Assembly: GCA_026075535.2 (NCBI GenBank)
Contig: AP026542.1
Location: forward strand, 186,001-250,000
Source: Tricholoma matsutake
Lineage: Eukaryota > Basidiomycota > Agaricomycetes > Agaricales > Tricholomataceae
Length of the DNA: 64,000 nt
Direction of reading: 5' to 3'
The translations under genes and the position numbers were made by a program. Under the pieces are notes generated by a model that searched no databases, had not been told where the DNA came from, and saw only the letters and a list, made by a program, of their open reading frames with translations. Shown here one piece after another: positions 1 to 51,942 of this stretch. The stretch's first letter is position 1. Each line of letters begins with the position of its first letter.

Positions 1-398
1 ATCGCACATATCCATGCAAACTTCAAGACGATGCATAATCTCTATCTTGTCATGAAGGGGCATGAGACTCCCACTGCTGATGAGATCCTTATGGCTTCTG
101 GAAAGAAGACTTTTGATAACTCACTTCAAGCGGAGTATCTCAAGATAATCAAGGAGCAAGCTTCGGGTATCAAGGAGGCGTTCATGAAGCAGCAGGCAAA
201 GGCGGCGGTACATAACATGTCCAATATCTTTCTTGACGGGTGTTCATGAATACTCTTAGGAACCTTGGGATCAAGAGAAGTTTGAGCGACTTTTAATCAA
301 ATGGATGGTGGCTTGTGATCAACCGTTCGAGGAAGTTGAGAAGCCAGAATTTATTGCAGCTATGAGCTATGGCAGAACTGGTAAATTCACACAACTCT
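1..398 (+). pseudogene. hAT transposase fragment (N-terminal half), truncated
   Basis: The translation reads through a region typical of hAT transposases: a linker (MHNLYLVMKGHETPTADEIL), then after one in-frame TAG the motif WDQEKFERLLIKWMVACDQP followed by FEEVEKPEF. This is the conserved block that follows the BED finger in hAT proteins (family knowledge). The 5' part, including any BED finger, lies outside the window. The reading frame stops making sense exactly where the terminal repeat of the large KDZ element begins (399), so the gene was probably interrupted by that element. No continuation of this hAT gene is seen at the other end of the element. Non-functional. Confidence 0.75.
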
Positions 399-870
399 CA
401 GTGACTTTAGACCATTATATATGGACTAACTAATGGTGGCTTTAGGCCATATTTAATGGTCCAGCTAATGTGGGCCCATAGACTGTAATAGACCATAGAA
501 GATGTGTGGGCTCATCTGGCAGGTATAAGTTCATTTAAATAGAATGGGCTCATGGGTGAAATGAGTAGAGCTTTATACCACATGTGATGGGTGGGCCCAT
601 GGGATATGTTAGTATTGGAATAGACCATAGATGATGGGTGGGCTTATAGGACATGAGGACTTAGCAGTAGACCATGGATGATGGGGTGGGCCCAAGTGTA
701 ATTTTGGGACTGGTATGGATCATGTATAATGGGTGGGCCTATGTGATATGTTAGCATTGGAGCAGACCATGGCTGATGGGTGGGCCTATAGGACATATTG
801 AAGCAGTAGACTATGAATGTTATGGTAGGCCCATGTAGGTCATGTTAGCAGTGTATTAGACAATGAGATG
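399..870 (+). repeat. Left long terminal inverted repeat of the KDZ element, with internal subrepeats
   Basis: It starts CAGTGACTTTAGACCATTA and shares CTAACTAATGGTGGCTTTA, CAGCTAATNTGGGCCCAT, AGACCATAG and GTGGGCTCAT, in order, with the reverse complement of the right end. After about 560 it becomes a series of degenerate units of roughly 60-70 bp built on AGACCATRGATGATGGGTGGGCCCAT. By eye the outer 200 nt of the two arms are about three-quarters identical. No gene is seen in it. Confidence 0.8.
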
Positions 871-1002
871 AGGCTCTTACCATTGCTACATCTTAGCCTT
901 CCAAGAGACTACATGGTAGCAAATGCCCATATTACATATCAGCATCATAGATTCATAGTAGACCTTGAATATCTATTTGTCCTCTACTTGTGGCTGGATT
1001 GA

Positions 1003-1200
1003 ACCATTGGGGTGAGTACATCAGGATTGAACCATCTCGGTGAGTAGATCTTGATTGGTCCATTGGGGTAAGAATGTCGGGATTGAACCATCAGGGTAGG
1101 TACATCGGGAGAAGATTGTTCCATTGATGTAAGTCCATTGTGTTGGAATTTCATTGAGGTTAGTACCATTGGAATTGGTTCATCAATGTGGGAACATCAG
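1003..1200 (+). repeat. Tandem repeat of about 28-30 bp
   Basis: Successive units share GATTGAACCATYRGGGTGAG followed by TACATCRG; about five or six increasingly diverged copies can be lined up. It sits between the left terminal repeat and the 3' end of the minus-strand gene ending at 1365, possibly in its 3' flank. Nothing else is recognised in 871-1364. Confidence 0.7.
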
Positions 1201-1364
1201 ATCAGAACATCAGTATATTTCCACTTTTCTATACTTTTGTTGGACTGTTCCAGCCTAATATATTTAAGTAGTGTTAGTGTCAGTGATAATATAATTCACT
1301 CTGATGTACTCATTCCTGCTTCAAGCTTACATCCCAATATTGGCATTCATTAAAATAATGTAAA

Positions 1365-2680
1365 CTACAACTCAAGTTTTGAATTGTTAGCTACATATGT
1401 CTTGAGGCAATCATGCAGTTGTTCAACACCAGCTGCAAGATATAACTCTGCTTCCAACAACCTGGAGAGCAGGATGGCCTGCTTTTCCTTTGCTGTTGTC
1501 CTTACCTCAATGCCTCTTATTGCCTCTCCACTTCCACTTTCCAAACCCAAATCCTTCATCAACTCCTCGATGCCAGGCCGCAAGAGGAAGGAGTGGACTG
1601 AAGCTGCCGACTCTTCAATCATTCCTTCCCCCTGATCCTCTACTGCTCTCCCCTTTCCCTTCACCGCTTTCCCAGATCCCAGCATGATGTCATCCACTTC
1701 CACTATCCCCACCGTCTCCTGCAGATTCTCCTCCTCCACAAACTCCACCTCATCTGATTCATTGCCACCATCATCCCCCAGCTGGTCCACCTGCTCCTCT
1801 TCCTCAGTTTCTGGTTCAGGTGATCGATTGTCTTCAGAGGTTGGAGAAGGTGGTGTATGAGATCGTGGCCATTTCGGGGATGGCTGTTCCTCGCTGCATA
1901 TTGTCATTCTGACATCATAGTCAGGTGTAGAAGCAAAGTCGATGGGGTCGGAGGCTGGAGATGACAGAGTTTTCAGGATGGTGACAATTGGGGGTGTTGG
2001 TGGGTGAGGAATGAATACAGGCCTTGTCCTGAGAGGAAGAGGCAGGGGCAGCAACAGCAGTAATGGCAGTGGAAGTAGTGAATCCAACTTAACATTTCCT
2101 TCCATAATTCCTTCCATCCGGTGCTTGTTTATAGTCGCCTGTCGTATGTGGAGTGGGGTTCCCTCCTCCAGTGGACTCTTGAACCTCACATGTCTATCAT
2201 CACCCTCCTCAACATATCCACCAAGTGGAAGTGTGGGCACTGGCATGCCATAGAATTGGGAAGACAGAATGAGTCCCCCCACAGAACCATCTTGAAATTG
2301 GGGATGGATAGCTGGCAGTCTCATCATGGCTATTGGAACCTGAGGAGGTGCCAGTGTTTCAGGGAGGGTGGAGGTACTGGCGACCATCAATCTGCTCAGT
2401 TTCAGACGAGTTCTCAGTTTTGAAGATGGCTGAAATCCAGAATGAACCATCGGAGGCTCAATTTCAGCAGTAGAAAGAGTTAGCGGAGCTGTGTTGGGGT
2501 TGGGGACAGCAGATGTACTGCCATCCGAAGATAAGTCCAACTTTCGATGCTTTGTCAGTCTGGATGAGGGTTGGTAGTCCGGCATAGAGGGAGCAGGTTG
2601 TTTTGATTTCGGGACCACCTGAAAACAATGTAATTACAACTAAATTAGTATTACAATTCACTTACCTTGATCTTTGGCAT
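1365..2680 (-). CDS. Uncharacterised acidic, low-complexity protein (KDZ element cargo)
   Basis: Two exons are predicted. A 15-nt first exon (2666-2680, coding MPKIK) is followed by a 47-nt intron (2619-2665) with GTAAG donor and TTTTCAG acceptor, and the second exon runs open to 1365, giving about 422 aa. The start was chosen because the long frame has no ATG at its beginning but sits right at a splice acceptor. The protein is rich in P, S and L, has a leucine/proline run near residue 190, a Glu/Asp-rich stretch around 290-330 and a C-terminal helical segment. No domain is recognised. It is transcribed divergently from the Zn2Cys6 gene with 180 bp between start codons. The frame is intact, unlike the neighbouring cargo genes. 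Function unknown. Confidence 0.7.
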
Positions 2681-2860
2681 TGGAATATTGGTTTCGGGGA
2701 TGTTTGAATTGTTTTAGTACACAAGTTCTCGATCGATCAATTGACTTACCATGTGGTTCCGATCAGATTCTCGCAAACAATACCGATCCAGTACTTCAAC
2801 ATTGTTCACTCAATCAATTAACAATACTTTGCCCTTCAGCTTCAGATATCAACTCTGCAA
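2681..2860. promoter_or_regulatory. Divergent intergenic region (180 bp), probable shared promoter
   Basis: It separates the start codons of two outward-facing genes (minus strand at 2680, plus strand at 2861). It contains GATC-containing sequence (GATCGATCAATTG near 2731) but no motif I can assign. Its role as a promoter is inferred from the head-to-head layout only. Confidence 0.4.
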
Positions 2861-5489
2861 ATGCCTTCCTACAATCAAGTTGCTGAATCTTACATCAATG
2901 ACATCCTCCCTTCCATTCAACCACATCTCCATCGATCCGTCACAAAGGCCATCTTCGGAGGTGATGAAGATCTTTTACTACTCCTTCAAGAACTTCCAAA
3001 CTCACCAGTATGTCTGTTAACTATCCAAATTTCATCCTATAATGTATCATTTCTATCAAATTGGGGATTGAATACCCTCATCGGGCAACAGTTGTTGGTA
3101 TGGATCGATGAGTGCAAGCTGGAGATTGTTCTTCTACAACATGGCTGAGGCTATACAGTAAATGAGGAAAAAGTGAAGAGTTGGATTGTACGTTAACTCA
3201 ATTTACCTGTCAATGAGTTTCTAACTGTACTTCCTAGTACACTACTTCATCGGGTGCTCAAGATGTACCGGAATGTGAGGGAGATGGCAGATATGACTTT
3301 GTCCCATCTCGTCTGCTCATCAGCATGGCCTTGCAGCTTGACCGAGCTGATACTCAAGGAACGGAAGTCGACTTTGGCAAGATAAAGCGGGATGACCCCT
3401 TGTTGTGGTACCACCCGATGCTTTCAGAGGAGGGCAGCAGTACTCGGGAGTGGTTTTCAGAAGGGCGTCAGACACCAGGTAGGTTTCACTCAGTTTAGCT
3501 TGAATTATCTACATATTGAATCACATATAGTACCTTGTGCAGTTCGGAACGGAGTAGCTGCCTGTATAATAAATCCAATCGTCATCCCAGGCAACATCCA
3601 GATTCATTCGAGGGATGAAATGTTGCAAATTATTCCCCCACCGCCCACTTCAACTGACCCGGCTTCAAGTCATCGTAGCATTCCTTTGGCCAGAATGACA
3701 GTGGATCCGTCAACACAATACCAGCTTTTGAAAATGACTCCCATGGGACGGAGGAGCCATTCACAGACTTGTATCAAAAGCAGTGAGTATGTGAACGACT
3801 CTTCTGATGAGATAAAGGAAGAGGCCTGGTTGGAAGAAGCAGGAGAGAGAGGGCAGAGCAGGATGAAGAAGGTGGATGTTAAAGGAAAGCAGAAGGATAC
3901 AGCAGAGGCGATGGATGTGGATTTGGAGGAGGTTGACCAGCCTGCGGAGGGGTCATCACAACCCTCAAGAAGATCACAACCCAAGGCAACAACGTCAAAA
4001 TCAAGCATGAAGCCTGGAACAGAGACCATGCGTCCGCCAAATTTGGGCAACACGGAGGCTTGTGCAAGGTGTGTGAAGCTGGAGGTGAGATGCGTGTATG
4101 CGGGCAACACTGCTTGTTTGTCATGTCGAGGTCGCAAGCAGAAGTGTACAAAGGTTGTTGGGGAGTGGTGGACAAGAGGGAAAGCAACAGTGACAAAGGA
4201 AGGAAAGACACAGGTCATCAAGTCAGAACCAAGAGCAACCCCAACAACACCTGCGTTGGGTGATGAAAACATGTTGGAACCCTCCCCATCAAACCCAAGC
4301 CTACGCCGATCAACCAGGACCCGAAGCACTTCAAGGCCACCTGAGGCAGCTAAGGCTTCATCAACCCCAAGCAGGGGATCGATGCCAAAGCCACCAGTGA
4401 CACCAAAGAGAGGGACAACTTCAAAACCAACAAGGGCAGCAGTGGCGACACCAAAGGCAAAAGGAAAAGCAAAGCCAAGAAGTTGATCCAAGTCGAAATC
4501 CAGGAAGACGGATGAGGACGAAGCCATGTCGGATGGTGGAGAGACTTGCCGAGGGAGTCCAGGGGTGGTAACAGTGCATCCATTGGGGCAGGTACCATCG
4601 GAGTACCTTTACTTCGTAAATTGGAAAGGGGAACAGGTCAGTGAGGCTGTCCTAGTTGTCAACAATGGTGAGGCGAGTGTTGAGGGAGAAATGGCGATGG
4701 TGCAACAGCTTCAATGGGAGAATAACCGACTGACTAAGGAGGTCACAGAGATGCGAGAGGAGATGAGGAAGATGAAGGAGATGATGGTAGCAATGGAAAT
4801 GAGCCAAAGGGTGCTTATCAGCAACCACAATGCCCATACTGCACTCCTGGAACAGCATCAGCAAACGTTGACCAAAGTCATGTCCCAACCTACAACGCCC
4901 TCCAACCGCCGAACACCTGAGGATGGAGGTGCCATGGAGAGTCTCAGCATGCCACCATCCCGCTTTTCATCATCACCCTTCTATGAACATTGTCCCATAT
5001 CCCTCCCCTTATCCCCCTAATGATTTCACATCACCCATTATCACTCCGAGGAGTTCAAGAGTCTTCAACAACATTATTCAGCCCAGCATGTTACAGCTGA
5101 ACAAACTCAGGATTACACCAAGTCCGAATCCTTCCGGTCAGTATCATCGAACCTCTGATGCTGCAATGGAGGAAGAACGACCTGTTGCGGGACCATCCCA
5201 TGCAGCTTTGGCGAGTGGACAGGATGTACGAGAGATGGCTTCACAAATGGTATCCCCGGAGGTTGCCTTGAATACCATGCCAGAGGTTGAGAATGTAGAT
5301 GAGAGTGATGGTGCAATAACAAAGGAACAGGAGGCCGAGAGACCTAGGATGGTCATGCCCAGGATAATGGAATCTCCAGTGTCAGGAATGGAAGATGAAT
5401 ACAATAGAGATTCTTTTGCCATGGCAATCGACGAATCCGATGAAGAATTGGACAGGGATCGTCAGTATAACTGGGAAACATTACTTTAG
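2861..5489 (+). pseudogene. Zn2Cys6-cluster protein with coiled coil (KDZ element cargo), damaged
   Basis: Predicted exons are 2861-3007, 3092-3187, 3238-3478 and 3531-5489, with GT-AG introns of about 50-85 nt that keep phase. A cysteine cluster at about 4057-4148 has the spacing C-x2-C-x6-C-x7-C-x2-C-x6-C, which matches the fungal Zn(II)2Cys6 DNA-binding pattern. It is preceded by a K/E/S-rich region and followed by a basic S/T/P/K-rich stretch and a heptad-like coiled coil at about 4690-4810 (ENNRLTKEVTEMREEMRKM). Breaks: in-frame TGA at 3146-3148 and 4484-4486, and a frame change near 4990-5010, after which the coding signal continues to 5489. Inferred role: DNA-binding accessory protein of the element. 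Unlike Gal4-type factors it has no recognised regulatory domain. Confidence 0.72.
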
Positions 5490-5569
5490 TGTTAAAATGA
5501 TTATTGTCAACAGCTTTGGTAAGATAGGCATTCATGGATTACTGCATGCAAACTAGTACATAACTGAGG

Positions 5570-6180
5570 TGACAAAATGATGACGGGAGAAAACGACCCA
5601 ACAAAATGACCCGACAACATGACCTGACAAAATGACCCGATGACCCGACTAAATGACCCGACAAAATGACCCAACACAATGAACTGACAACATGACCCGA
5701 CAAAATGACCCAACATTTTGTCGGGTCATCTTGTGTCGGGTCATCTATTGTCGGGTCACAATACCATTTTGTCACATCCTCAGGTTACTTGGCTAGGTGA
5801 TCATTTTGTCAGGTCATTTTGTCGGGCCATCCAGTGTCGGGTTATCTAGTGTCGGGTCGGTTTTGTCGGGTCATGTTGTCGGGTCATTTTGTCGGGTCAT
5901 TTTGTCGGGTCATTTTGTTGGGTCATTTTGTCGGGTCATTTTGTCAGGTCGTTTGTCGGGTCATCTGGTGTCGGGTCATCTGGTGTTGGGTCATCTGGTG
6001 TCGGGTCATCTAATGTCGGCTCGCTTTGGTCAGGTCATTGTGTCGGGTCATTGCATCAGGTTGTTTTGTTGGATCATCTGGTCGGGTCATTTACTGTCGG
6101 GTCATTTTGTCGGGTCATTTTGTCATGCCATTTTGTTGGGTCATTTTGTTGGGTCATTTTGTTGGGTCATTTGTCTATAG
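5570..6180. repeat. 13-bp minisatellite array I (GTCGGGTCATTTT), with internal inversion
   Basis: From about 5575 to 5707 the unit is in the minus orientation (GACCCGACAAAATG); from 5714 onward it is in the plus orientation (GTCGGGTCATTTT), with 14-15 bp variants such as GTCGGGTCATCTGGT. The switch point is a hairpin with perfect 14-bp arms and a 6-nt loop (5694-5727). It fills the gap between the 3' ends of the convergent Zn2Cys6 (+) and HMG-like (-) genes. It is frame-open in several frames but not coding. Confidence 0.95.
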
Positions 6181-6392
6181 TGAATGCTCGAAAATTCCAA
6201 ACAAAGACCACTATGCTTGTCTGGATACTATTCTACATTTACATTGTCCTTCCCTTTCATTTCTTCATCTCTGCCTTCTTTGGAATTATCTTTAAATTAG
6301 GCTGCTCACTTATTGGTACTGGTTTTTCAGTTGTGTTTCGAGTAGACCGCCTTTGAGGGGGCTTCAAAACTGCAGGACATTTCAATTATTCA

Positions 6393-8479
6393 TCATCTTG
6401 GACAAAATAGACCAAGCTTACCCAATGACTGTGAATGAGCAGGTACATCGATAGAAACTTTTGGCTTCTTCTTTGGTGGTTCCTTTATCTTCTCAGCCAA
6501 CCTCGACTTTATCACCTTTCCTTTCTGCATCATCTCTGGTTCTTGCTGATCCCCCCCATGAATCTCATACTCATTTGTCGCAGTGTTGGCACTCTTCCAA
6601 GCATCCATGGCCCTACCAGTCTGTTTGCTTAAAGGTCGCATCGTACTCTTTCGAACAAGTTCCGTTGCCAGGCTGAGCTTCTGCCGTTTCCTAACTGGAT
6701 GCATCTTGCTATTTCTGGAATTTCCTATGATCGGAATTGGTGTCTTGCTTGGCCCGCCCTTCGGTTGTCTGGACTGCATTACATCTTCCTCTTCCGATGA
6801 CTCCATCTGATTGACCAATGTGAAATCAAACACTTCACCCGATTCCTCAACCTCGTTTAATGTGGGAGCCCTCCATTTACGCCTTCTTGAATCTGGAACA
6901 ATATGGTCAGTCCACCTTTCCTCAGGCTTCTCCACCCTCTTTTCCTTGCCTTTACCCTCCCTCTCACTCTTCTTGGTCCTTGGGCGGCTTGGGCGGCTTG
7001 GTGTTTTGGCATTGGAATCAGCATTGGAATCAGAATCGGAATCGGAATCATCTCTTGATCTCTTCTTTCCCTTCAGTTTTTTGTCCTGATAGAATTTGAA
7101 ACCAAAACCATTGCTTTCCTGATTAGAGTACCAAAATGTCAAAATCTCCTTGATCTGGTGGTCCTTCATCCTCAATGGATCCATAAGCTTGAAACCATCA
7201 GGAACCTGATCTGCCCCAAAGTACTTATCTGCATCTTCAATGAACGACATCCAAGGAGGGATTGCATTTTCATTACTGCAAGCCAGACCTGACAAGTCAT
7301 CCAGGATGAGAATGAACAAATGATTGCCGACCCACTCACAATATGCTGACCTGACATATGACCTGATTAACACTTTCTTATCCATCCCTTTGCTCGGCCA
7401 GTCAGTCAGCTCAGGAAGCAATGGATTCCCATTGGCATCCGTATCCAACTGAACATATGGTTTTCAACTTGAGGTTCCAATAGGAACTTGGAACTTTGCT
7501 TCTTCAGCTGCAGCTAACAAAAGACAATTATTTTGAATCTTTCCGATGAGAAATTATCCATTTACAATACATCTCCTTTGCATGCATGTTTAGAAGCCCC
7601 ATGATTGGCTTGGTATCCCAATCTTTGTTTGCTTGGAAGAAAGACTTCCCTCCGAGATCTCCCATAAATTCATGCCTACAAAGAAAAAGGTTTAACTGGC
7701 AGAAACAAATTCAGACAGTGAACAGACTTAACGTGTTCGTGACAAGTACTCCATTCACTTCCTTGTGGCATGTTAATACCAAACAGTCCATTCCACAAGA
7801 CTTTTTCATTTGCTTGCAGAAGGACTTCACATGCTTATGAGCCTGTTTTGCATTCCTGTTCTGCATTAGTATTGATAATACCAATATTCAACGTGAATGA
7901 CCTACCTTGCTTGTTCCTCAGCTGGGGGACCCATTTGATTCCATATATCGGCCAGGTCCTCCATCTTCCTTTTCTCTGCTTCCGATGTCTTCCCCCAAAG
8001 GTTACTCAACTCCTTCTGGTATGTGCCAAATGCCTTTTGATTGTCCGCCTTGCATGAAGTATCTTCTACCCATCCACCTGTTTTTCCTTGAATCATTTCC
8101 TTTAACTCCCCTTTTGCCTGAACGCCGAGAACCCTTCTACCTGTCCATTTCTTGATCCCCTTAAATTTCTTGGATGATTCTCTAGTTCTTCCATATGTAT
8201 GGAACCAAGCATATACACCCTGTTTAAAAATGCCCTGTTCAAAGGCATTGCAAAATACTTTCCAATTCATGAACTGACCTTCTTCCTCGACTCCTTATCT
8301 TCCCTAGACCAGTGGGGATTCTTTTTCTTCATTTTGTCATAAACTTTCTGACCAATTCTGTTCCACTGTGAATGATCTCCCTCTCGCCATTGTTCCTTTC
8401 TGGCTTCTAGGATTTCCACATCTTCCCCTGTCAGCTTAAAGTGGACGAGTTCGGGAGGAACATGGGCTTCAGCTGGCAT
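6393..8479 (-). pseudogene. HMG-like DNA-binding protein of KDZ elements, damaged
   Basis: Predicted exons are 8279-8479, 7906-8219, about 7733-7860, 7566-7675 and 6393-7513. The start at 8479 (MPAEAHVPP) begins a clean exon. The segment ELSNLWGKTSEAEKRKMEDL followed by ADIWN (about 7915-8040) resembles helices 2 and 3 of an HMG box. A divergent HMG protein is known from KDZ-TET elements; that this is the same family is my inference. The C-terminal half is basic and Ser/Asp-rich with KKK/KRSRDD patches suggesting nuclear localisation. Damage: the phase does not close at the exon 2/3 junction (about 7860-7906), and an in-frame TGA lies at 7464-7466. It is divergent from the KDZ transposase gene. 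Confidence 0.62.
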
Positions 8480-9399
8480 AGCGTATAGTGATGTAATGTA
8501 TGTGATGTGATGGTGGATAAGTGTATTTTTGGTGTTGTGGTATTGAAACAAGTACAAATCAGGATGCAGGGGAAATCATTTCATTATGGAATCAATTATA
8601 CCGATCATTGTCGATCATGGTTGATCATGGTTGATCAATTTTGATCATTGTCGATCATTGTCAATCATTAATTAATCCATCGATCCTGAGTCTTGAAAAG
8701 CCCCTAATTGTATGAGTCCAGTCACTGATCACACATATTGACCAATATGCTCCAAGGAATGCTCAGAAATGCTCAGAAATCATATCAGTGATCATTTGGA
8801 GACCAATCTTTCAGTTTAATCAAACCACTTGTCAACTTTCTTTTTGTCACCTAGTATGAAGTCATATATTCGAGTCAGTTGGCATCACTTCTAGATAGTT
8901 TGGTTGTAAAAAGGCATAAGAAAAAAAGCACTGTCTAAATCATAAATCCCCATAACATACATTCTTCAAAGATAAGATGAGATCATGAGGAACAAGTGTC
9001 ATTGGTTGTTTCATGGTTAGAAGTTTCTGATCTAATGTAAATTGTGGTTCGTACATCACCATCTACTTATGTTCTGAACAAAGCAAAACTTGGGATTTTT
9101 GAGTTAAAACCTTAAATTCTTAACATGTCTAACAATGTATTCAGAACTTATGGAGTTAGAATATTGTACAAATGTCATTTGTGTGATAGACTTGATATGT
9201 CATGATTGTGTAGTCATGTGATAGCCATTAAATCTCCCTACCATCTTCTTCAATACTACTTGAATACTACTACTACTACTAGTACTAGCTTTGCATTCTT
9301 TGACCTGACATTTTGACCAGTTTTTTAATGTTTACCTGACTTTGTTGACTTGCACCTAACTATCACGTGACTGAGAAATTTCCTTTTTTACAGAGGGTA
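8480..9399. other. Intergenic region upstream of the HMG-like gene; no gene seen
   Basis: AT-rich, no convincing coding sequence on either strand. It holds a GATC-rich repeat cluster (8587-8690) and a short TAC microsatellite (about 9250-9290). Before the Harbinger insertion this segment plus 12483-12555 would have formed the divergent promoter region of the HMG-like and KDZ transposase genes (inference). Confidence 0.6.
8587..8690. repeat. Cluster of short GATCA-containing repeats
   Basis: About eight near-tandem copies of TTGATCATNGTCGATCATGG-type units, many containing the palindrome TGATCA. They lie about 110-210 bp upstream of the HMG-like start codon. They could be protein-binding sites for the transposase or an HMG/Zn2Cys6 protein, but nothing in the sequence proves this. 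Confidence 0.55.
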
Positions 9400-9449
9400 A
9401 CCTGCTGGCGGGTGCCGAAAGACTTTGTTCTCTGCCTCCCTCCCACGAT

Positions 9450-10936: not shown

Positions 10937-10968
10937 ATTTTTGTACACTAACTGTACTGTACACTGTA

Positions 10969-12345: not shown

Positions 12346-12555
12346 GGTGATGATTTGCACATTTCATTGGAATGCTCTCCGAATACTATCATAGGCGTCT
12401 ATCAATCAGTCAATATTGATAATCACGAAGTGATCCATTAAGAGCTATGAGTGAATGAATTTCTTCGGCACCACCGGCAGGTCTGAATTGCCCTGGGACC
12501 CTCGCATCCGATGATTGATGGTTAGTCAGCAGTTTACACAAGCAACCAACATCTC

Positions 12556-15500: not shown

Positions 15501-16193
15501 AAGCTTGAGACAGAACTTTGGAGTGGGCAGTGCAATGACAACCTCAAAGGGATCAGGCTCATGCTGGGAAAGAAAGCTTTCTTGTTCATTATGAAGATCC
15601 GACCCAAGGGACCTAAAACAGGAAAAACAAAATCTTGGGATGGTATTCACTCTACCGACCAGGCCTTACAACTCTATGCTCAAAACTATCGGGCTGGTAG
15701 GGAAGCCCTGGTGTCATCGGGAGCTTCAAAAGAAATGCTAGATCGATTCCAAATCCTTGATCAGAGCCATCTAAAGATGAGTACTACATTGATAAATCCA
15801 AAGGAGTCTGGATGGAAGCATGATTCATTGCCATGGTTCTGGTATATGGATGTCAAGGGTGACAGTTTGTCATCTAATTATATGAAAGAATGTGAGTGGA
15901 TGAAAGATTGACTGATGTGTAAAACTAAAGATATATATGTAGTTCACCAGGTGAACTGGCTTAGAGCAAAAGCAGCATTTGAACGAGCGACGGAGGAAAA
16001 CACCCTTGTTCGGTATGAGATGAAATGGACAACAGCATACTTCAATCATCGGGCAGCAGAGTGGAGGAAGAGAAAAGAGGCTGATTACTCTCATGGACAT
16101 AAGATCTATGCTGCACAACAGGAGGCGATGTGGGAGGATTTTGCTGATACAGCAAGGAAGTCATTTATTAGATTGGGGGTGAATATTGATTAG
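12556..16193 (+). pseudogene. KDZ-family transposase, two in-frame stops
   Basis: A probable start at 12556 joins through a 48-nt intron to the first long exon. Introns at about 12823-12873, 13625-13690, 14229-14284, 14697-14740, 14931-14988, 15098-15148 and 15893-15949 keep the frame. The N-terminal cysteine cluster (CSSCGSSGDWHCLDCLGRPM then FCKDCC, about 12960-13050) is the CxC2-like domain. The RNase H-fold core shows FAIDGNFTASH (about 13940), YDIFCQW (about 14365), GSGVIDGEIVETLW (about 14540) and NWKKL. A coiled tail ends with HRAAEWRKRKEADY. TAA at 13907-13909 and TGA at 14403-14405 fall inside the catalytic core, so this copy should be inactive. KDZ transposases move the surrounding element. 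Confidence 0.92.
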
Positions 16194-16209
16194 AGTAGTA
16201 GTACATAAG

Positions 16210-16435
16210 TGTCCCGACCCAACACTAGATAACCTGATGAAATGACCCGACAAAATGACCCGGCGAAATGGCCAGATGACCCGATAAACAACCCGACAAA
16301 ATGACCTGACAAAATGACCCGACAAAACGACCCGATGCAATGACCTGACAAAATGACCCAACAAAATGATCACCTGACAAAATGACCCGATGACCAGACA
16401 AAATGACCCGACAAAATGACCCAACACAATGAGCC
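16210..16435 (-). repeat. 13-bp minisatellite array II, left part
   Basis: GACCCGACAAAATG units begin 17 bp after the KDZ transposase stop. The last 130 bp (16306-16435) are identical to 20097-20226. Without the gypsy fragment this part is continuous with the array at 20227-20960. Confidence 0.95.
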
Positions 16436-16689
16436 CTACTGAGACCTGCCAATGCACAACAAGAAATTCCCAATGCACCAGTACTATTCCAGGGATCTCT
16501 GCAATCCAGGGATCCACCCTTTCCGACCCTTGACCCGCCACTACTTTTGGAGTGTCTTCCAGACCCTCAAACATCTTCCAACAAATCGGCTCAGGAGCCC
16601 CCTCAATCAGTGCCAATCTCATGTCCACCCATGCCCTGCACCCTTCTGGCAACCCAGAAGGTTTTTGATCAAGAACTCCCCTTGAGTAC

Positions 16690-17820
16690 ATAGGGGGCAT
16701 CAACCAGCCTGAACCCTTTGGGTTGGAAGATCCTGGTCTAGAGGACGGACCCCCCAGCAGACCCGACGACCCTAGTGGTCCTGACAGCCCTGGGGGTGAC
16801 CCCGATCCCAATGATCCTGAGTATCAACCTCCTGTGGGGGAAAACCCTGACCCAGGGGATAGGTTCATAGATGTCCTTTATAACCTCTCGGAGAGTATCC
16901 GCACCCTTTGTCAGAATAACACACCCAAGACTGAGAAAATCAAAGTTCGCGACCCCAACACTTTCGATGGCACCATCTGAAGAAACTTAGAGACTTCCTA
17001 GTCTCCTGCAATCTTCATTTCCGTGACCGTCCACATGTATTTTCCTCTGATGAGAAAAAGATCATATTCATCCTTTCTTATCTTAAGGGATCAGCTCTCA
17101 GTTGGTTTGAGCCTGGTCTGAATGACCTGACAGATTCTGCACTCTGGATGTGGGACTATGAAGCTTTCCTCACTGAGCTGGAAAGCAACTTCGGGCTGCA
17201 CGACCCAGTCGGAGACGCAGAAAAAGCTCTCTCTGACTTAGCAATGGAGAAAGGTGGTCATATCACAAAATATAACGTTCACTTCTGGGAATTAGCTTCT
17301 AGGGTCAACTGGAATGAAGCAGCCCTTCATGACCGCTATTTCTGTGGTCTTCCACTCCAGCTTCACATAGAAGTTCTCCAGGGTGGTAAACCCAATACTC
17401 TTGCAGAACTGCACTTGAGAGTGCAGGACAGCAACGACATCTACTGGATGCAAGAAGACAAATCCCATTTCGAAACAAAGAATTCCAGTAACATCACTAA
17501 CTCTAGTCGGAAGGACTCTCCCAAAAGCCCTTCCCCATTGACAAACCAACCCTCTTCAAACTCCGCCTGTGGTAACACCTCCAACCAGCAGTCTTCCATG
17601 ACAAAGAACAATTCCCAGGACAAGCCCAAATTGTCCATATCTGATAAGTTGGGAAGAATGGCAAGCTTACTGGGGAGGAATGAGAATGTCGCATGAGAGA
17701 ATGACTTTGTCTCTACTGCGGTGAGGAAGGGCACATAGCAGGAAACTGCCCGAAATCCAAAGCTGCAAAAGCCCATGCATCCACTGTCGTTCCCGAGACT
17801 ACAGACTCGGAGAAATAGTC
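16690..17820 (+). pseudogene. gag of the truncated gypsy element
   Basis: A capsid-like region (about 16980-17460) contains SYLKGSALSWFEPGLND and FLTELESNFG, typical of fungal gypsy Gag. It is followed by a Ser/Asn-rich linker and a CCHC zinc knuckle, CLYCGEEGHIAGNC (about 17710-17755). The frame changes near 16980 and again before the knuckle, and there is a stop at 17694-17696, so it cannot give a full Gag. In an active element Gag forms the virus-like particle. Confidence 0.8.
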
Positions 17821-17979
17821 CGCAACCCTCAGGATACAGCCATTGGGGCTGCATTGACCTTACCCATTTGGCTGCCTACATTCGTCTCAATACATCCGCT
17901 CTTTCCGACCCTGACTCCTTAACCATTCTTTTAGCTTTTCCTGACTCTTCCACCCCTTTCTAAACCTTATCAACTCTGG

Positions 17980-19944
17980 CTCCTCCCACTACTTCCTTGA
18001 CTCCTCTTTCGTGTTGAATAACCAACTCAGTATGGAATCCATTAACCCGATCCGTTTATGACTCTTTGATGGATCTTGCAACTCCACCCTAACTCAGGTC
18101 ATCAAACTTCCGGTCACCTTCCCTGCCAGTCAAGTGTTCAATTTGTCATTTTATGTAACCTTGCTCGACTCTTCCTGTTCCGCCGTACTTGGTCATAACT
18201 GGCTGAAGCAATATAATCTGTTGATTGACTGGTCTTCAAGCCAACTCGCTTTCCGCTCTGCAGATCATAGAGGTCCAGCACCCCTGACATCACCTTTGTC
18301 CCCAAATCTTCCAGTAGAAATCCTTGACTCCTCTGCATTTTCCGAAACCCCCATTCCTCCTAAATTTACACCCCCCAACATCTCCTTCATCAACACTGCT
18401 GCTTATGTGCATGCTAGCAAACTTCCTGGAGCAGTAGCTTTTCAGATGACCTTCGCTCCAGAAGGGTTATCCACCTGCTCCGCCCAATCTGCTAACTCAT
18501 CCGACCTCTCCAATATTCCACCCGAGTATCACGAATTTGCTGATGTCTTTAACAAGACTAAAGCGGATACCCTTCCTCCACATCGGTCTTACGACCTCAA
18601 GATAGAGACAGAAGACAACACTCCTCCGCCTCCAGGCCACATGTATTCTCTCTCCCCCTCTGAACTAGAAGCCTTCCGAGTCTTTATTGATGAAAATGTC
18701 TGCTCAGGTTTCATCCGCCCATCCAAGTCTCTGCATGGGGCTCCAATTCTCTTTGTCAAGAAGAAGGATGGTAGTCTCCAAGTTTGTGTCGACTACCGAG
18801 GACTTAACTGTCTTATGAAGAAAGACCGCTACCCACTTCCTCTCATTTCTGACCTCCTTGACTCTCCCCACAAAGCCTGCTTATTCACCAAGATAGACTT
18901 GTGGCATGCTTATCACCTAGTCCGCATTGCTGATGGTGATGAGTGGAAAACTACTTTCCACACCCGCTATGGATCCTTTGAGTGGTTGGTAGTTCCTTGG
19001 GGCTCACTAATGCACCCGCAGCTTTCCAGCAGTTTATGAACAACATCTTCAGTGACATGCTGGATGTTTGTGTCATCATATACCTCAACAACATCCTAAT
19101 CTATTCCGATGACAAGTCCCAGCATGGGGCTCACGTCAAAGAAGTCCTCCACCATCTCCGGGAAAATGGACTTTATGCCTCTCCACAGAAATGTGAGTTC
19201 CACAAAGACACCATCAAATATTTAGGTTTCATCCTTTCACTGGATGGACTACGGATGTCCAAGGATAAAGTCAAAACTGTGCTTGACTGGCCCGAGCCTA
19301 GAAAAGTTAAGGATATACAATCCTTCTTAGGCTTTTACAACTTTTACCGCTGCTTCATTAATGGGTATTCAGACATTGTCATCCCACTCACCCGCTTGAT
19401 GCGGAAATCCACACCCTGGGACTTCAACAAGAAGTGCCGCAATGCTTTTGAAAAACTCAAACAAGAATTCACCCATGCCCCCATCTTAACGCAATGGGTA
19501 CCTGACTCACAGATGGTACTCGAAACTGACACTTCCAACTATGCCTTAGCAGCTATCCTTTTGATTTACACTGTGGATGGAGAAATCCATCTGGTCGCTT
19601 TTCATTCCTGCTCTTTCAATCCCACTGAACTAAATTATGACACCCATGATAAGGAACTCTTGGCCATTTTTGAAGCCTTCAAACACTGGCGGCAGTATTT
19701 TGAGGGTTCCACAAACCCAGTTGATGTGGTCACTGACCACAAAAATCTTGAGTACTTCAGCACTACCAAGTTGCTCACCTGCTGCCAGGCCTGTTGGTCT
19801 GAGTACCTTTCCCAGTTCAATCTCGTCATCCGCTTCCGCCCTGGAAAATTAGGGGCCAAGCCAGACGCACTCACTAGACATTGGGACATCTACCGCAAAG
19901 GGGGAAATAGTGACTTCACCTCCATAAACCAAACCAACCTCTGA
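17980..19944 (+). pseudogene. pol fragment (protease remnant, reverse transcriptase, RNase H), catalytically dead
   Basis: The reverse transcriptase begins near 18560 and includes FVKKKDGSLQVCVDYRGLN, DRYPLPLI and FTKIDLWHAY. A one-base frameshift lies near 19000, within the conserved VVP-G-LTNAPAAF block. The active-site motif reads YLNN (19081-19092) instead of YxDD: both aspartates are asparagine. RNase H follows ([42 protein letters not shown]). Integrase and chromodomain are missing. The frame ends at 19944. Confidence 0.9.
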
Positions 19945-20096
19945 CCTATATTCAGCTCACCTCTTCCCTTTGCGCCACCTATTTCGCCACACCCATCCTT
20001 TGACAAGCAGTAATCATGGATGTTGAGAAACTTCACCATGACATCCACACCTCCCTACCCCTTGACCCCTTATCATCCACACATCTTCCGACACCC

Positions 20097-20960
20097 CTGA
20101 CAAAATGACCCGACAAAACGACCCGATGCAATGACCTGACAAAATGACCCAACAAAATGATCACCTGACAAAATGACCCGATGACCAGACAAAATGACCC
20201 GACAAAATGACCCAACACAATGAGCCAACACCAGATGACCCAACACTATGACCCGATAAAAGACTTGTTTTATTGGGTCATAGTGTCGGGTCATCTGGTG
20301 TTGGCTCATTGTGTCGGGTCGTTTTGTTGGGTCATTTTGTCGGGTCATCTGGTGTCGGGTCATTTTGTCGGGTCGGTTTGTCAGTTTGTCGGGTCATCTT
20401 GTGTCGGGTCGGGTCATCTTGTGTCGGGTCATCTGGTGTCGGGTCATTTTGTCGGGTCATTTTGTTGGGTCATTTTGTTGGGTCATTTTGTCAGGTCATT
20501 TTGTTGGGTCATTTTGTCGGGTCATTTTGTCGGGTCATTTTGTCGGGTCATTTTGTCGGGTCATTTTGTCGGGTCATTTTGTCGGGTCATTTTGTCGGGT
20601 CATTTTGTCGGGTCATTTTGTCGGGTCATTTTGTCGGATCATCTGGTCGGGTCGGAATACTTATCTGGCCATTTTGTCCCGACACCAGATGACCCAACAA
20701 GATGATCTGACAAAACGACCTGACACAATGACCCAACAAAATGACCCAACAAAATGACCCAACAAAATGACCCGACACCAGATGACCTGACACCAGATGA
20801 CCTGACAGTAGATGACCCGACCAGATGATCCGACAAAATGACCCGACAAAATGACCCGACAAAATGACCCGACACCAGATGACCTGACACCAGATGACCC
20901 GACAGTAGATGACCCAAATACTTATCTGGCCATTTTGTCGGGTCATTTTGTCGGATTGAT
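20097..20960. repeat. 13-bp minisatellite array II, right part, with alternating inverted blocks
   Basis: Minus-oriented units (20097-20262) switch to plus orientation (about 20270-20655), back to minus (about 20680-20920) and to plus again near 20930. The first switch is an imperfect hairpin with arms of about 40 bp (20222-20307). A second pair of 24-bp perfect inverted arms lies at about 20631-20654 and 20816-20839. The array fills the gap between the 3' ends of the KDZ transposase gene (+) and the gene ending at 21088 (-). About 127 bp without recognised content follow. Confidence 0.95.
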
Positions 20961-21087
20961 CTCACTTTCATTTTGCAGGGTGGTTTTATATTGTTGTAAT
21001 CGTTTCACATACATTCGAATATCTTTCATGGTCCAAAGGTAAATAATGATTATCCAATATATAATTCCATAGGTAAGCCTCTCTCCA

Positions 21088-21822
21088 TTATCTCAAATCA
21101 TCCTGTATAGCTGCCCAAATACTAGCCACTCTTGTTTGACTCTCCAACATGTTTCGATATCCTGCCATCATAGCAGGTAGGAGTTCCCTTGGAAGTATAG
21201 GATGGTGTTGCCTGGTGGTTTCATCACCAGTGATGTTCTAAGATGATCACAATGAGCATTGTCCAGTTACATTTAAAATTAAATCCAAGATGAAGAGGAT
21301 CACTCACAAATTCTCTATGTGCCTGAAGTGCTTGCTCCAGACTCATACCCCACTGGTTGTTCAAAGATATTGAGAACCAGGGCTGTCTTTTCTGGCCACT
21401 AGTGGTGGGATGTTCTTGTAAGTAATTAGAATGCAATCCTCTAATCTTTTCAAGGAGTCCAAGGAGCTCTTCTTCTGCCTTGACAATATGATGCATTTGC
21501 TTATAAACTTCTGGAACTATAATGTGGAAACTCTTCAGATAACATTTCCCCAGGAATTGTTGACCCGCAGCCTGTCCAATTTTAGAAAACCGAATGAAAT
21601 GACAGTTCCCATTGATTCACTTACCGATTCTTCTCTAATCATTTGCAAATATTGCAATTTATGCTCCATTGAATGATTACTATTGGGACTGATTGCTGCC
21701 ATGAACAAACTCCGTGAGCAGAGAAGATCCATGAATTCCTGTGCTTCGGCGTTGTTCGAAAAGGGGAAATCAATGACACCTTCATGGATAAATGCTGGCA
21801 ATACATTCCAGTTGATGCTCAT
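21088..21822 (-). CDS. Uncharacterised KDZ-element cargo protein B (about 203 aa)
   Basis: Three exons (21625-21822, 21308-21571, 21088-21237) each have a length divisible by three and join through GT-AG introns of 53 and 70 nt to an open frame starting MSINWNVLPAFIHEG. Three clean junctions in phase make this a credible gene. It looks globular and mostly helical, with segments such as SMEHKLQYLQMIREES, KAEEELLGLLEKIRGLHSNY and RELLPAMMAGYRNMLES, and no transmembrane segment. I do not recognise a family. It starts 119 bp downstream of the stop of gene A on the same strand; the two might be parts of one longer gene, but no splice pattern joins them convincingly. Confidence 0.65.
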
Positions 21823-21940
21823 GGTTGGTTATTTGACCATCTCTCAAGTTTCAAGTAAATATATCCAATGTTGATCGTTACATAAGTTGCATAGCCATAA
21901 GCAGACTTCCAATCATCAAGACTCCATTATCTACTTTTGA

Positions 21941-22680
21941 TCACCGGGTTAAAGGCAAGGTAAGTCGGACTGGACATTCCACATTGGAGACCTCCTCATC
22001 ATCTACAAGATCTTCCCTTTCTATCAAGAGCTCTCCCACAGCCACATGTACCATTCCCAATGCAAGCAACGAGTCCTGCTGACTTTGGCTGACATCAAGC
22101 AAAACCCTTGATTGGAAGGAAGGGGCAATTTCATTGACACCTGGCCCCACCTGTTATCAATAAAAAATATTATCATTCTAGTATCTAATAATGAGATGTA
22201 GTGCTACATACCACGTTCCGGAATCTCGGTACATCTGGGAAAAGGTCTGGATTGATGACCATGGGAGTACTGATGATCCACCAAGGATTGAGGTATGGTT
22301 CCACAATCCTTGTCAAGTTGATGTCAGTAGTAGCCTCCCTGAGCGACGAAAGGCTTCCCTTGAATGTGCCAATGTCCGAACTTGATACATCCATGACCAA
22401 GGAGTGCAGTCTTTTTTGAAAAGGGGTGGGATGAAGGAACTTGTTCTCAAGGATCATCCATCCAAGTATAATTTCCAGAATCCCCTAACACTGGATAAAA
22501 ATGTAGTTATGTAGGAGTAATGCAACTTACAAGTTCTTGCTTCATCCTGACTTTCCAAATATGATAATACTCATTGAGACCCGACTGACGATGAGGCTGT
22601 TTAGCTTCAAGTGTCGCTGCTCTAGCCCGGGAGCAGAGATAATCAACAACTGCCTGGCATGTTACTTTCGGAGCACTCAT
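21941..22680 (-). CDS. Uncharacterised KDZ-element cargo protein A (about 210 aa)
   Basis: Three exons (22531-22680, 22212-22484, 21941-22150), all in phase zero, give an uninterrupted frame starting MSAPKVTCQAVVDYLCSRAR. The sequence includes NEYYHIWKVRMKQEL, ILGWMILENKFLHPTPFQKR and an acidic stretch EREDLVDDEEVSNVE near the C-terminus. No domain is recognised. It is transcribed divergently from the TET/JBP gene with 303 bp between start codons, so the two may be co-expressed. The last exon could instead splice on near 21943, giving another C-terminus. Confidence 0.65.
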
Positions 22681-22983
22681 TGTCAGGAGCAATGATAGAT
22701 ATTGATGAGAATGATTAGAGAAATCAACATCTATCATTGATCGCTTATTGGTATCGGAGATCAAAGTCACTGATGATGTTCAGATGATGTTCATAGATGA
22801 AAGATAACATCAATTGGGATCAGGATCGGGATGGACAACAATCGCAGCAACATTTCATTTCACTGGACATTCTTGACAATTGGAATGTCAGATATCAGAT
22901 TGATTTGAGTGATCAGTAGATAAAGGCCCCTCTGATTTATATAAATACAATCTGTTGTCTATGTCAGATTCATCAGATTCAAC
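22681..22983. promoter_or_regulatory. Divergent intergenic region between gene A and the TET/JBP gene
   Basis: 303 bp separate the two start codons. It contains repeated TGATGTTCA words (about 22775-22795) and GATCAGGATCGGGATGG-like sequence, with ATTTATATAAATACA about 40 bp before the TET/JBP start as a possible TATA element. Promoter function is inferred from the layout. Confidence 0.45.
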
Positions 22984-24364
22984 ATGTCATTACCATCTAA
23001 CTCGCCTTTCTTCTTGACCGACACTGTTTCAGACTACCTCCGAGCCCGATTTTGGTGGGTAATTTCAAGGAAGCTCCATGAGAATCAGAACGTTCCCAAT
23101 CTCACAAAGATGAAGGCAATTTGGCCGATCTATAACCAAGAGAATCCTGGCCCACTTCCTCCACTTTCACTATCAGTTCAACTCGCAGTTGACTGTGAAC
23201 AAATGGCAACAATGGCAGCTGATGCTTATTGCAATAGAAGTAATATTTAGATTTTGTCAATTTGAAATTTCTGGCTAAATGATTTCAGTGAAATTCAATG
23301 ATCTTGATGTGCAAAGATACGACTCAAACATGTTATCGAAGAGACCGACTGGTCGGAACGACTCCAAGGAGGATTCCTTGATCATGACAAGCTGTTATGG
23401 TGGACAGAGACTACTTACCCAGCCGACCATTGTCCTAGACATGCATGAATGGATCCTACTTTGGTTCCTGCCTGGCATCCTGAGCCCGGAAAGACAGGTG
23501 AGAACTTGTTGATATAATAATACCCCCCTCTGATTCATTCGACTATCACTTGGCTTGTAGAGAATTCTTTGGGAGGCTGCACTGAAGATGGACCAATCTC
23601 TCAGAGGATCCCTTACTCTGAATCTGACTCGCACAAAATGGTGTTCGGATCCTCAATATTATAAATCTCCTGGAAAATGTCAGCCTTATCCTGGCAATAT
23701 CAATCTCTCGCCAGCTTGGTTCCAGCAAGCACACAATGTAAGTTGAAGGTTTTTATATTTCAGGGCCTTTAATTCTATCTTCTGATTGTTCTAGACTTCT
23801 AAATTCAAGCCCGAGATTTCAAAGACCTTGAAGGCGAGATCGGAGAACCTGAACACACTTGGATGGCTGAAAGAAACTTCGGAATCGTTCACACTGATGG
23901 GTGCCTTGCTCAGCATTGTTCATCCTGAACTGTATGAGATTGGTTGGGGGGTGCTGAAGAAGGTGGGAGATTCTCTGGACATGGTAAAGGATGGTGAGGA
24001 GGTGCTAGAGGTTTTACAGCTGTGGACAACACCTTTCTCAGGATATGGTTTGATCAGTAATTGCATCACCCCTATGCATCAGGACAACAATTCCCAAGGC
24101 CCATGGTACGACTGTTTAATGACCATCGGAGATTATGAAAAGGGAGCTTGGTTGAAACTCAAGAACCTTGGATTGGAGCTGGATTATCCTTCAGGAACAA
24201 TGGTTTTCCTGCTGGGAAAGGTAATCCAACATGGAATTTCAGAGATTAATGGGAACCAGGTATGTATTGCCCAATATATGAGGGATAATGTTCATGAGAG
24301 GATGAGGATGAGATCGCCTGAGTGGACGACAGTGACCAAGACTTTCTCATCTGTGCCAGTCTGA
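22984..24364 (+). CDS. TET/JBP-family 2-oxoglutarate/Fe(II) dioxygenase, intact
   Basis: Four exons (22984-23239, 23289-23497, 23561-23737, 23795-24364) join in phase to a 403-aa protein without stops. The C-terminal domain shows the double-stranded beta-helix motifs of the family: the iron ligands H309 and D311 in ITPMHQDNN, YDCLMTIGDYEKGAWLKLKN, LDYPSGTMVFLLG, the distal iron ligand H360 in VIQHGIS and the 2-oxoglutarate-binding R377 in IAQYMRDNVHERM. Upstream, EWILLWFLPGILSPERQ and LSPAWFQQAHN match the N-terminal region of basidiomycete members. TET/JBP enzymes oxidise 5-methylcytosine or thymine in DNA (family knowledge). It lies 198 bp inside the right terminal repeat. All key residues are kept while neighbouring cargo is broken, so an active enzyme is plausible. 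Confidence 0.92.
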
Positions 24365-24561
24365 ATGATTTGTATTTCCAATTTTATTTCATGATACAAT
24401 ATCATACTGGGTGACAAATGAACTTTTGTATGGTTATCTTCTGATGTAATGATGTGGAGCTAGCACTTCAACATATTTTGACCAGCATGCCCAACAGAGA
24501 ACATAACCTTTGAAGGATGCCATGCACCAATACATGTGACCTTGTGGAGACCCTTGTGTGT
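24365..24561. other. 3' flank of the TET/JBP gene
   Basis: AT-rich sequence between the stop codon and the right terminal repeat; no recognisable gene or repeat. Confidence 0.5.
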
Positions 24562-25081
24562 CTTCCTTTGACCCATGGGCCCATTCATCATATGGTCCAC
24601 TGCAGTATTAATATATATAACCCATGGGCCCATCCATCATATGTTCCACTATAGTGTTGACATGACCCATGGGCCTATCCATCATATGGTCCACTGCAGT
24701 ATTGACTTGACCCATGGGCCCATTCATGACAAATGGCCTATAGCAGTACTCATATCACCTATAAGCCCATCCTATTTCCATGACCTTATATCTACCACAT
24801 GAGCCCACTTATCTACTATGGTCTGTTATAATCCATGGGCCCAGATTAGCTGGACCATTTCAAAGTATTGACTTGACCCATGGGCCCATTCATGACAAAT
24901 GGCCTATAGCAGTACTCATATCACCCATAAGCCCATCCTATTTCCATGACCTTATATCTACCACATGAGCCCACTTATCTACTATGGTCTGTTATAATCC
25001 ATGGGCCCAGATTAGCTGAACCATTTCAAACAGCTTAAAGCCACCATTAGTTGGTCCATTTGTAATGGTCCAAATACACTG
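24562..25081 (-). repeat. Right long terminal inverted repeat of the KDZ element
   Basis: Units of GACCCATGGGCCCATYCATCA alternate with ATGGTCCACTGCAGTATTGAC and mirror the left arm in reverse complement. The end reads AATGGTCCAAATACACTG, the inverse of the left CAGTG start. It contains a 166-bp tandem duplication. Confidence 0.8.
24698..25029. repeat. 166-bp near-perfect tandem duplication within the right terminal repeat
   Basis: 24698-24863 and 24864-25029 differ at only a few positions by eye (for example CACCTATAAG versus CACCCATAAG). The duplication lengthens the right arm relative to the left and looks recent. Confidence 0.88.
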
Positions 25082-51937: not shown

Positions 51938-51942
51938 CTAGT

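What the first reader, a model, noticed from the sequence alone, without database searches (positions are those of the whole stretch)
399..25081. A 24.7-kb KDZ element with long inverted ends and a TET/JBP gene
The sequence shows mirrored long terminal repeats around three divergent gene pairs including a KDZ transposase, an HMG-like gene, a Zn2Cys6 gene and a TET/JBP dioxygenase. The TET/JBP-KDZ-HMG link is known. What may be new is a complete boundary definition, the Zn2Cys6 partner, and the three additional unknown genes acting as one package: a mobile unit that carries its own DNA-modification eraser together with likely DNA-binding proteins.
Basis: partly seen in the sequence, partly recalled or inferred. 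Interest (0 to 1): 0.92.

Follow-up and report, generated by a model that had tools for sequence, protein, structure and literature searches.

The report
Mushroom transposon carrying a methylation eraser
This is one rearranged copy of a large, multi-copy jumping element of the matsutake mushroom that carries its own DNA-methylation eraser; the kind is already known, but its layout, its ends nearly free of CG sites and its decay at CG sites make it a useful case for how transposons and DNA methylation interact.

Summary
Real, and largely of a known kind. The element spans 390-25090 (not 399-25081) and belongs to a TET/JBP-carrying KDZ (Kyakuja-type) transposon family of Tricholoma matsutake. 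Six marker searches gave 60 clusters with a marker of this family (some are fragments of one element); 25 copies have both ends. A 7-bp target duplication is perfect in 19 of 25. The window copy has none: its flanks come from two different loci, so it is a recombinant. Its length is inflated by a 3.66-kb Ty3/gypsy fragment absent from 11 other copies. The body has three divergent gene pairs (unknown/Zn2Cys6; unknown 'HMG-like'/KDZ transposase; unknown/TET-JBP). Zn2Cys6 is supported; HMG is not. Opposed 13-bp minisatellites lie where genes converge. Main additions: CpG positions differ between copies 6-9 times as often as others; 144 of 176 copy-specific stops are TGA where another copy has CGA; both ends are almost CpG-free. 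Ends that cannot be CpG-methylated on an element carrying a TET eraser is a testable idea; plain mutational CpG loss remains a strong rival.

The parts
390..25090 (+). Whole element in the window (24,701 bp with the gypsy insert); tips CACAACTCTCAGTG and CACTGAAGGGGCTG
   Evidence: shared sequence of 11 other full copies begins and ends here
390..610 (+). Left inverted end
   Evidence: 217 nt, 79% complementary to 24866-25082; alignment
24866..25090 (-). Right inverted end; 24698-24863 is a tandem second copy of 24864-25029
   Evidence: I1, I3, D7
499..789 (+). Left subterminal repeats, about 47 bp spacing
   Evidence: 5 matches to a 17-bp unit with <=4 mismatches, none elsewhere in 1-25500 on this strand (the unit was taken from the arms)
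24575..24896 (-). Right subterminal repeats, same unit in opposite sense
   Evidence: 5 matches
1368..2680 (-). Gene 1, unknown, about 422 aa
   Evidence: ORF, model; no Pfam hit
2861..5486 (+). Gene 2, Zn2Cys6 protein; cluster at 4061-4147; broken in this copy (an in-frame stop, and a frame change when aligned to P0013)
   Evidence: C-x2-C-x6-C-x7-C-x2-C-x6-C; Pfam Zn_clus below cut-off; relative P0013 at 54% identity
6260..8479 (-).
   Evidence: model; relatives P0011 and P0012; no HMG hit
9401..12481 (.). PIF/Harbinger-type insert, ends read by eye: accessory gene 9448-10933 (+), DDE_Tnp_4 gene 10972-12345 (-)
   Evidence: imperfect inverted ends; PF13359 E 6.5e-23; present in 11 of 11 other full copies
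12694..16190 (+). KDZ transposase gene with CxC2 domain
   Evidence: PF18758 E 8.6e-13, PF18803 E 1.7e-20 on separate exons; model
16436..20095 (+). Ty3/gypsy pieces (gag, RT, RNase H) nested in this copy only
   Evidence: Pfam; absent from 11 other full copies; between perfect 131-bp direct repeats
5592..6170 (.). First opposed minisatellite, 13-bp unit, between the converging 3' ends of genes 2 and 3
16241..20946 (.). Second opposed minisatellite (16241-16428 and 20104-20946, split by the gypsy pieces), between the converging 3' ends of KDZ and gene 7
21091..22737 (-). Gene 7, unknown
   Evidence: model (low score); no Pfam hit for the 381 aa scanned
22984..24361 (+). TET/JBP dioxygenase gene
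   Evidence: PF12851 E 8.3e-19; CcTet 7vpn; relatives incl. T. matsutake proteins

Best explanation
A recombinant copy of a large TET-carrying Kyakuja-type (KDZ) DNA transposon family of Tricholoma matsutake. The KDZ transposase, perhaps helped by the Zn2Cys6 and gene-3 proteins as DNA-binding accessories, would recognise the CA..TG tips, the ~220-bp inverted ends and the ~47-bp subterminal repeats and insert the element with a 7-bp stagger. The TET/JBP enzyme would oxidise 5mC (possibly 6mA) on element copies and relieve silencing. Element bodies decay mainly at CpG, as expected of methylated DNA; the terminal arms hold almost no CpG and so could hardly be CpG-methylated. Shown: ends, duplications, gene set, many copies, CpG-biased decay, CpG-poor arms, codon-position bias in KDZ, recombinant nature of this copy. 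Inferred: which protein binds what, that methylation drives the decay, that TET acts on its own element, that CpG-poverty of the arms is useful to the element.
For: KDZ and CxC2 domains; TET domain with H, D, H, R kept in 11 of 11 copies with sequence there; 7-bp duplication perfect in 19 of 25 copies against 2 of 552 mismatched pairs, and 0 of 8 perfect ones among the full copies extend to 8 bp; CA..TG tips; linkage of markers; CpG positions differ 6.1-9.2 times as often as others per copy, with five different copies as reference; 144 of 176 copy-specific stops are TGA where another copy has CGA; 0-2 and 0-3 CpG in the outer 500 bp of the 12 full copies against 21-26 expected from base content; KDZ codon-position bias 71 of 160, fixed differences 22 of 36.
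Against: Kojima reports no TIRs for Kyakuja, here there are long ones; no transposase tree was built. The window copy lacks a duplication. Methylation and expression were not measured. TET shows no codon-position bias (26 of 70), and its D337 equivalent is Asn in 4 of 11 copies. Bodies decay at CpG in spite of the carried TET. Every one of the 10 other copies that keep most of KDZ has a stop beyond one shared by all, though under a model made from the window copy.
Confidence: 0.8

Rival explanations
1. The CpG-poor arms are simply non-coding DNA that lost its CpGs by mutation long ago; nothing selects for unmethylatable ends, and coding parts keep CpGs through protein constraint.
For: TpG+CpA is high in the arms (o/e 1.38 and 1.63); a CpG-free stretch of 847 bp also occurs outside the element, and 4 of 384 overlapping (1 of 77 non-overlapping) 500-bp windows outside it have no CpG; the whole region is CpG-poor (o/e 0.38).
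Against: Non-coding spacers and introns of the same element keep CpG-capable positions (159 of 2700; 71 of 1753) while the arms have 8 of 1000 (the right-arm part rests on fewer aligned copies); none of 150 windows inside the element is CpG-free; the left arm is also conserved at non-CpG sites (11 of 494 vs 822 of 12543).
Confidence: 0.5
2. The TET gene and other extra genes are passengers; movement needs only KDZ and the ends, and most copies move in trans.
For: No detectable codon-position bias for TET, Zn2Cys6, gene 3, gene 7 or Harbinger; one copy with a perfect duplication lacks 2542 of about 3042 nt of KDZ, although the loss may postdate insertion.
Against: Active-site residues of TET are kept in 11 of 11 copies; TET, KDZ association recurs in other fungi (Kojima); the Zn2Cys6 protein has a 54%-identical full-length relative in a metagenome. 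Power of the codon test is low.
Confidence: 0.3
3. The window copy is an intact insertion whose duplication has mutated away.
For: Two other copies match only at 5/7.
Against: 2 of 7 matching bases; paralogous DNA runs on without a break after the left site at two places and precedes the right site at another, with unrelated sequence.
Confidence: 0.03

Closest known systems
TET-carrying Kyakuja families of Agaricomycetes (Kojima 2025, PMC12730594; read: abstract, introduction, 3.1, 3.2, 3.4, first part of the discussion, figure legends, term passages)
   Same: KDZ transposase, AG-type/CcTET-like dioxygenase, CA..TG tips, 7-bp duplications
   Different: No TIRs reported for the Laccaria families; Zn2Cys6, Harbinger, minisatellites and CpG of the ends are not treated in the parts read ('zinc' and 'Tricholoma' 0 hits)
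KDZ1 of Cryptococcus (PMC12810828, passages)
   Same: Mobile KDZ element with long TIRs (241 bp)
   Different: About 11 kb, 8-bp duplications, CxC1 instead of CxC2; no TET shown in the passages seen
TET/JBP-KDZ associations of Iyer et al. 2014 (not held; recalled and as cited by Kojima)
   Same: TET/JBP genes beside KDZ transposases, recalled also with HMG genes
   Different: No complete element boundaries according to Kojima's introduction
KDZ and Plavaka elements of Marasmius oreades (PMC8290104, passages)
   Same: TIR motifs of KDZ elements in an Agaricales genome
   Different: Details are in a supplement not read
Subterminal repeats of CACTA/En-Spm and Ac/Ds (recalled; listings only)
   Same: Repeated units near both ends in opposite sense
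   Different: Unrelated transposases; here the units hold almost no CpG

Membership tests
Kyakuja (TET+) | KDZ transposase domain | tested here: met
   PF18758 E 8.6e-13, with CxC2 PF18803 E 1.7e-20 on a neighbouring exon
Kyakuja (TET+) | 7-bp target duplication | tested here: met
   19 of 25 perfect, 0 of 8 perfect ones in full copies extend to 8 bp; not met in the window copy itself
Kyakuja (TET+) | CA..TG tips | tested here: met
Kyakuja (TET+) | No TIRs (as Kojima describes two Laccaria families) | tested here: not met
   217 nt at 79%; the very tips differ beyond CA until CAGTG. I treat this as a descriptive, not a defining, feature
Kyakuja (TET+) | AG-type TET/JBP: HxD, second H, and G/S and D at the CcTET 331 and 337 positions | tested here: met
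   H, D, H, R in 11 of 11; S at 331 (window copy) and D at 337 in 7 of 11 copies
Kyakuja (TET+) | Place in the KDZ transposase tree | not tested
   no reference transposases were at hand
Zisupton / Dileera | 8-bp target duplication | tested here: not met
   8 bp from Kojima
PIF/Harbinger (inner insert) | DDE_Tnp_4 nuclease | tested here: met
   PF13359 E 6.5e-23
PIF/Harbinger (inner insert) | Accessory Myb/SANT gene, TIRs and 2-3-bp duplication | tested here: inconclusive
   neighbour gene has no Pfam hit; imperfect inverted ends, no clear duplication
HMG-box protein (gene 3) | HMG-box profile match | tested here: not met
   none at E<=1 for 271 aa or for P0011, none at E<=0.1 for 356 aa
Zn2Cys6 (gene 2) | Six cysteines with canonical spacing | tested here: met
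   same spacing in P0013; Pfam score 19.7, below its cut-off of 21

The most novel reading that the evidence does not exclude
The element counters methylation in two ways: a carried TET eraser for its genes, and terminal arms kept free of CpG so that the transposase-binding ends can never be CpG-methylated; the CpG-dense opposed minisatellites (o/e 0.86-0.87, against about 0.4 in genes and near 0 in the arms) at the two convergent junctions would act as insulators, terminators or methylation sinks.
Probability: 0.2. Interest if true: 0.75.

Novelty: new variant of a known kind. Interest (0 to 1): 0.5.

Why it matters
Many near-complete copies of one TET-carrying transposon family in a chromosome-level genome make an open question testable: do transposon-borne TET enzymes relieve silencing, and do they protect their own DNA from CpG mutation? 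What is seen here (strong CpG decay of the bodies in spite of the eraser, ends with almost no CpG) sharpens that question and gives exact ends, target duplications and candidate binding repeats for experiments.

Tried and rejected
Rejected: the window copy as a native insertion. Rejected: Harbinger as an insert private to this copy; one short copy suspected of lacking it has its larger part and a different deletion. Rejected: ends living mostly free of the genes. The automatic duplication call picked wrong right ends in four copies and was redone with exact end matches, where one copy failed the exact match and was read by eye (7/7). The first CpG count called a position CpG if any copy had CG there, which favours variable positions; one search repeats it with one copy as reference (ratio 6.1-9.2).

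Led nowhere: AlphaFold models of the TET exon (mean pLDDT 41) and of gene-3 relative P0011 (37) were too poor for a fold search, so none was run. Iyer et al. 2014 is not held. Other TET families of the genome could not be fetched, so whether CpG-poor ends are general is untested. A search for papers holding transposon, terminal repeats, CpG-free, methylation and escape gave none, which proves no absence.

Limits: each DNA search of the genome scored 40 of 58-142 candidates, so copy numbers are lower bounds and a missing marker is not absence. Gene models come from a home-made predictor trained on this window, so stop counts favour the window copy. Codon tests count sites, copies are related, and 12 tests were made. 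Right-arm alignment statistics rest on fewer copies because of a duplication private to few copies; the per-copy CpG counts do not.
Full report
Where it is. The window is C5:186001-250000 of a genome of 161,040,721 bases in 13 contigs. A published table gives 13 sequences, 161,040,721 bases and an N50 of 12,376,747 for Tricholoma matsutake Sample A (PMC11595502, passage); contig C6 here is 12,376,747 bases long. TET relatives with the best scores are named T. matsutake proteins. The text of the genome paper has no hit for KDZ, TET or 'DNA methyl' (PMC10211490, term search), and an earlier matsutake transposon paper none for KDZ, Harbinger, methylation or dioxygenase (PMC6980582, term search).

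Ends and family. The inverted arms exist: 217 nt at 79% complementarity. Alignment with 11 other full copies puts the ends at 390 and 25090. A left-end probe found 40 full-length matches at 99-100% identity (40 of 142 candidates scored). Pairing left and right ends gave 25 two-ended copies, the window's included. Their flanks show a 7-bp duplication: 19 of 25 perfect, 3 at 6/7, 2 at 5/7, the window copy 2/7. Mismatched left-right pairs match perfectly in 2 of 552, both from two chromosome-1 copies with the same flank, so the 25 are at most 24 independent insertions. None of the 8 perfect duplications among the 12 full copies extends to 8 bp. CA..TG tips and 7-bp duplications are what Kojima reports for TET-carrying Kyakuja elements, first described on two Laccaria families, there without TIRs (PMC12730594). 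KDZ1 of Cryptococcus has 241-bp TIRs and 8-bp duplications (PMC12810828, passages), so long TIRs are not new in KDZ.

The window copy is a recombinant. Its left flank occurs at five other places; two of these were read across the junction and run on unbroken after AAATTCA. Its right flank occurs at one other place, where unrelated DNA precedes GCCTCCC. The two halves thus sit in two different sites, most simply through recombination or deletion between two copies. It also holds a 3.66-kb stretch with Ty3/gypsy gag, RT and RNase H that none of 11 other full copies has, between perfect 131-bp repeats. The 12 full copies measure 19.2-28.4 kb; six measure 20.7-21.2 kb.

Genes. Predicted models give three divergent pairs: gene 1 and gene 2 (Zn2Cys6), gene 3 and KDZ, gene 7 and TET/JBP. 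The Zn2Cys6 cluster has canonical spacing, kept in a 657-aa metagenome protein at 54% identity over 74% of the query. Gene 3 has two relatives, each covering about a third of it (66% and 37% identity), and no HMG match. TET matches PF12851 and CcTet (7vpn, 8jkk). Active-site H, D, H and R are kept in 11 of 11 copies with sequence there; the D337 equivalent is Asp in 7 and Asn in 4; the G331 equivalent is Ser in the window copy. Kojima links these two positions to 5mC and 6mA activity. Between gene 3 and KDZ lies a PIF/Harbinger-type insert of about 3.1 kb with imperfect inverted ends and a DDE_Tnp_4 gene. It is in all 11 other full copies, and the 40 scored hits of its nuclease (of 75 candidates) all lie in clusters of this family. 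It was in the common ancestor of these copies.

Do genes travel with the ends? Clustering six marker searches gave 76 clusters: 16 hold a TET domain hit alone (other TET genes), 60 hold at least one DNA marker of this family, 18 hold left end, Zn2Cys6, Harbinger, TET and right end. Some of the 60 are fragments of one element. Hits without another independent marker: 3 of 40 left ends, 1 of 40 right ends, 2 of 40 TET hits, 0 of 40 Zn2Cys6, 0 of 40 Harbinger. The genome holds 61 TET/JBP domain matches at E<=0.001 (86 of 86 candidates scored) and 165 KDZ matches with only 150 of 831 candidates scored.

Decay at CpG. With one copy as reference, CpG positions of the six gene blocks differ from another copy 26-30% of the time, other positions 3-5%: a ratio of 6.1 to 9.2 over five references. 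With the looser definition (CG in any copy) 1306 of 1433 CpG positions vary, against 1052 of 15,989 others (sums over), but that definition favours variable positions. Of 176 copy-specific in-frame stops in the eight models, 144 are TGA where another copy has CGA; 11 more stops are shared by all copies and probably lie in introns. This is what deamination of methylated CpG would leave; methylation itself was not measured. The rest of the window is as poor in CpG (o/e 0.38), so the decay is not special to this element.

CpG-poor arms. The outer 500 bp hold 0-2 CpG on the left and 0-3 on the right in the 12 full copies, against 21-26 expected from base content. Arms have 8 CpG-capable positions per 1000, spacers 159 of 2700, introns 71 of 1753. 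The left arm is conserved at non-CpG sites too (11 of 494 variable, coding 822 of 12,543, p 2e-5); the right arm is not clearly so (24 of 498, p 0.08). Against a special meaning: one other long CpG-free stretch (847 bp, 56064-56911) lies outside the element, and 4 of 384 overlapping or 1 of 77 non-overlapping 500-bp windows there have no CpG. TpG and CpA are in excess in the arms, as after CpG loss. The arms carry subterminal units of about 47 bp, 5 matches in each, pointing the same way from each tip, none elsewhere in 1-25500 (the unit was taken from the arms). They are likely binding sites (inference).

Opposed minisatellites. A 13-bp unit, TGACCCGACAAAA, forms arrays that begin in one sense and end in the other at the two convergent junctions: the first in 12 of 12 full copies, the second in 11 of 12, the exception being deleted there and one copy keeping only six units. 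CpG o/e is 0.87 and 0.86. A three-unit pattern occurs 567 times in the genome (about the first hundred listed); of 41 places I drew from that list, 35 lie inside marked elements, 3 within 20 kb of a marked fragment and 3 elsewhere. Their role is unknown.

Selection. Non-CpG changes fall on codon position 3 in 71 of 160 for KDZ (p 0.0024), in 22 of 36 of its differences fixed between two groups of copies (p 0.0006) and in 31 of 64 for gene 1 (p 0.009). Others: gene 3 55 of 138 (0.06), Zn2Cys6 67 of 179 (0.14), TET 26 of 70 (0.29), gene 7 24 of 79 (0.75) and fixed 12 of 24 (0.07), Harbinger 39 of 132 (0.85). With 12 tests only the KDZ results survive a Bonferroni correction. That the whole package is maintained by selection is therefore not shown.

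Verdict. A new, well-documented family of a known kind with a layout I did not find described in what I could read. What deserves follow-up is the contrast of nearly CpG-free arms, CpG-decaying genes and CpG-dense minisatellites on an element that carries a TET enzyme.

Noticed in passing
window 16305-16435 and 20096-20226: Perfect 131-bp direct repeats of minisatellite DNA flank the gypsy pieces; far longer than a usual insertion duplication.
   Followed up: partly
copies L015-L017, L027-L029, L030-L032, L035-L037: Four of 11 fetched copies form a more diverged group with extra insertions and longer, repeatedly inverted minisatellites.
   Followed up: partly
G000 C1:12404488-12425575 and C1:18975018-18996082: Two copies on contig 1 share the same 20-bp flanks on both sides, so one looks like a copy of the other made with its surroundings.
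   Followed up: no
G000, whole genome: 16 TET/JBP domain hits lie outside this family, three of them with 275-aa open frames, probably another TET family.
   Followed up: no
window 24698-25029: A 166-bp tandem duplication in the right arm; two other right ends match it over the full probe (C12:4627734, C7:8862091).
   Followed up: no
window 56064-56911: An 847-bp CpG-free stretch outside the element, nature not determined.
   Followed up: no
window 44598-44932 and 51522-51940; 26811-28201 and 45413-46634: Other direct repeat pairs at 79-95% identity to the right of the element, probably other mobile elements.
   Followed up: no
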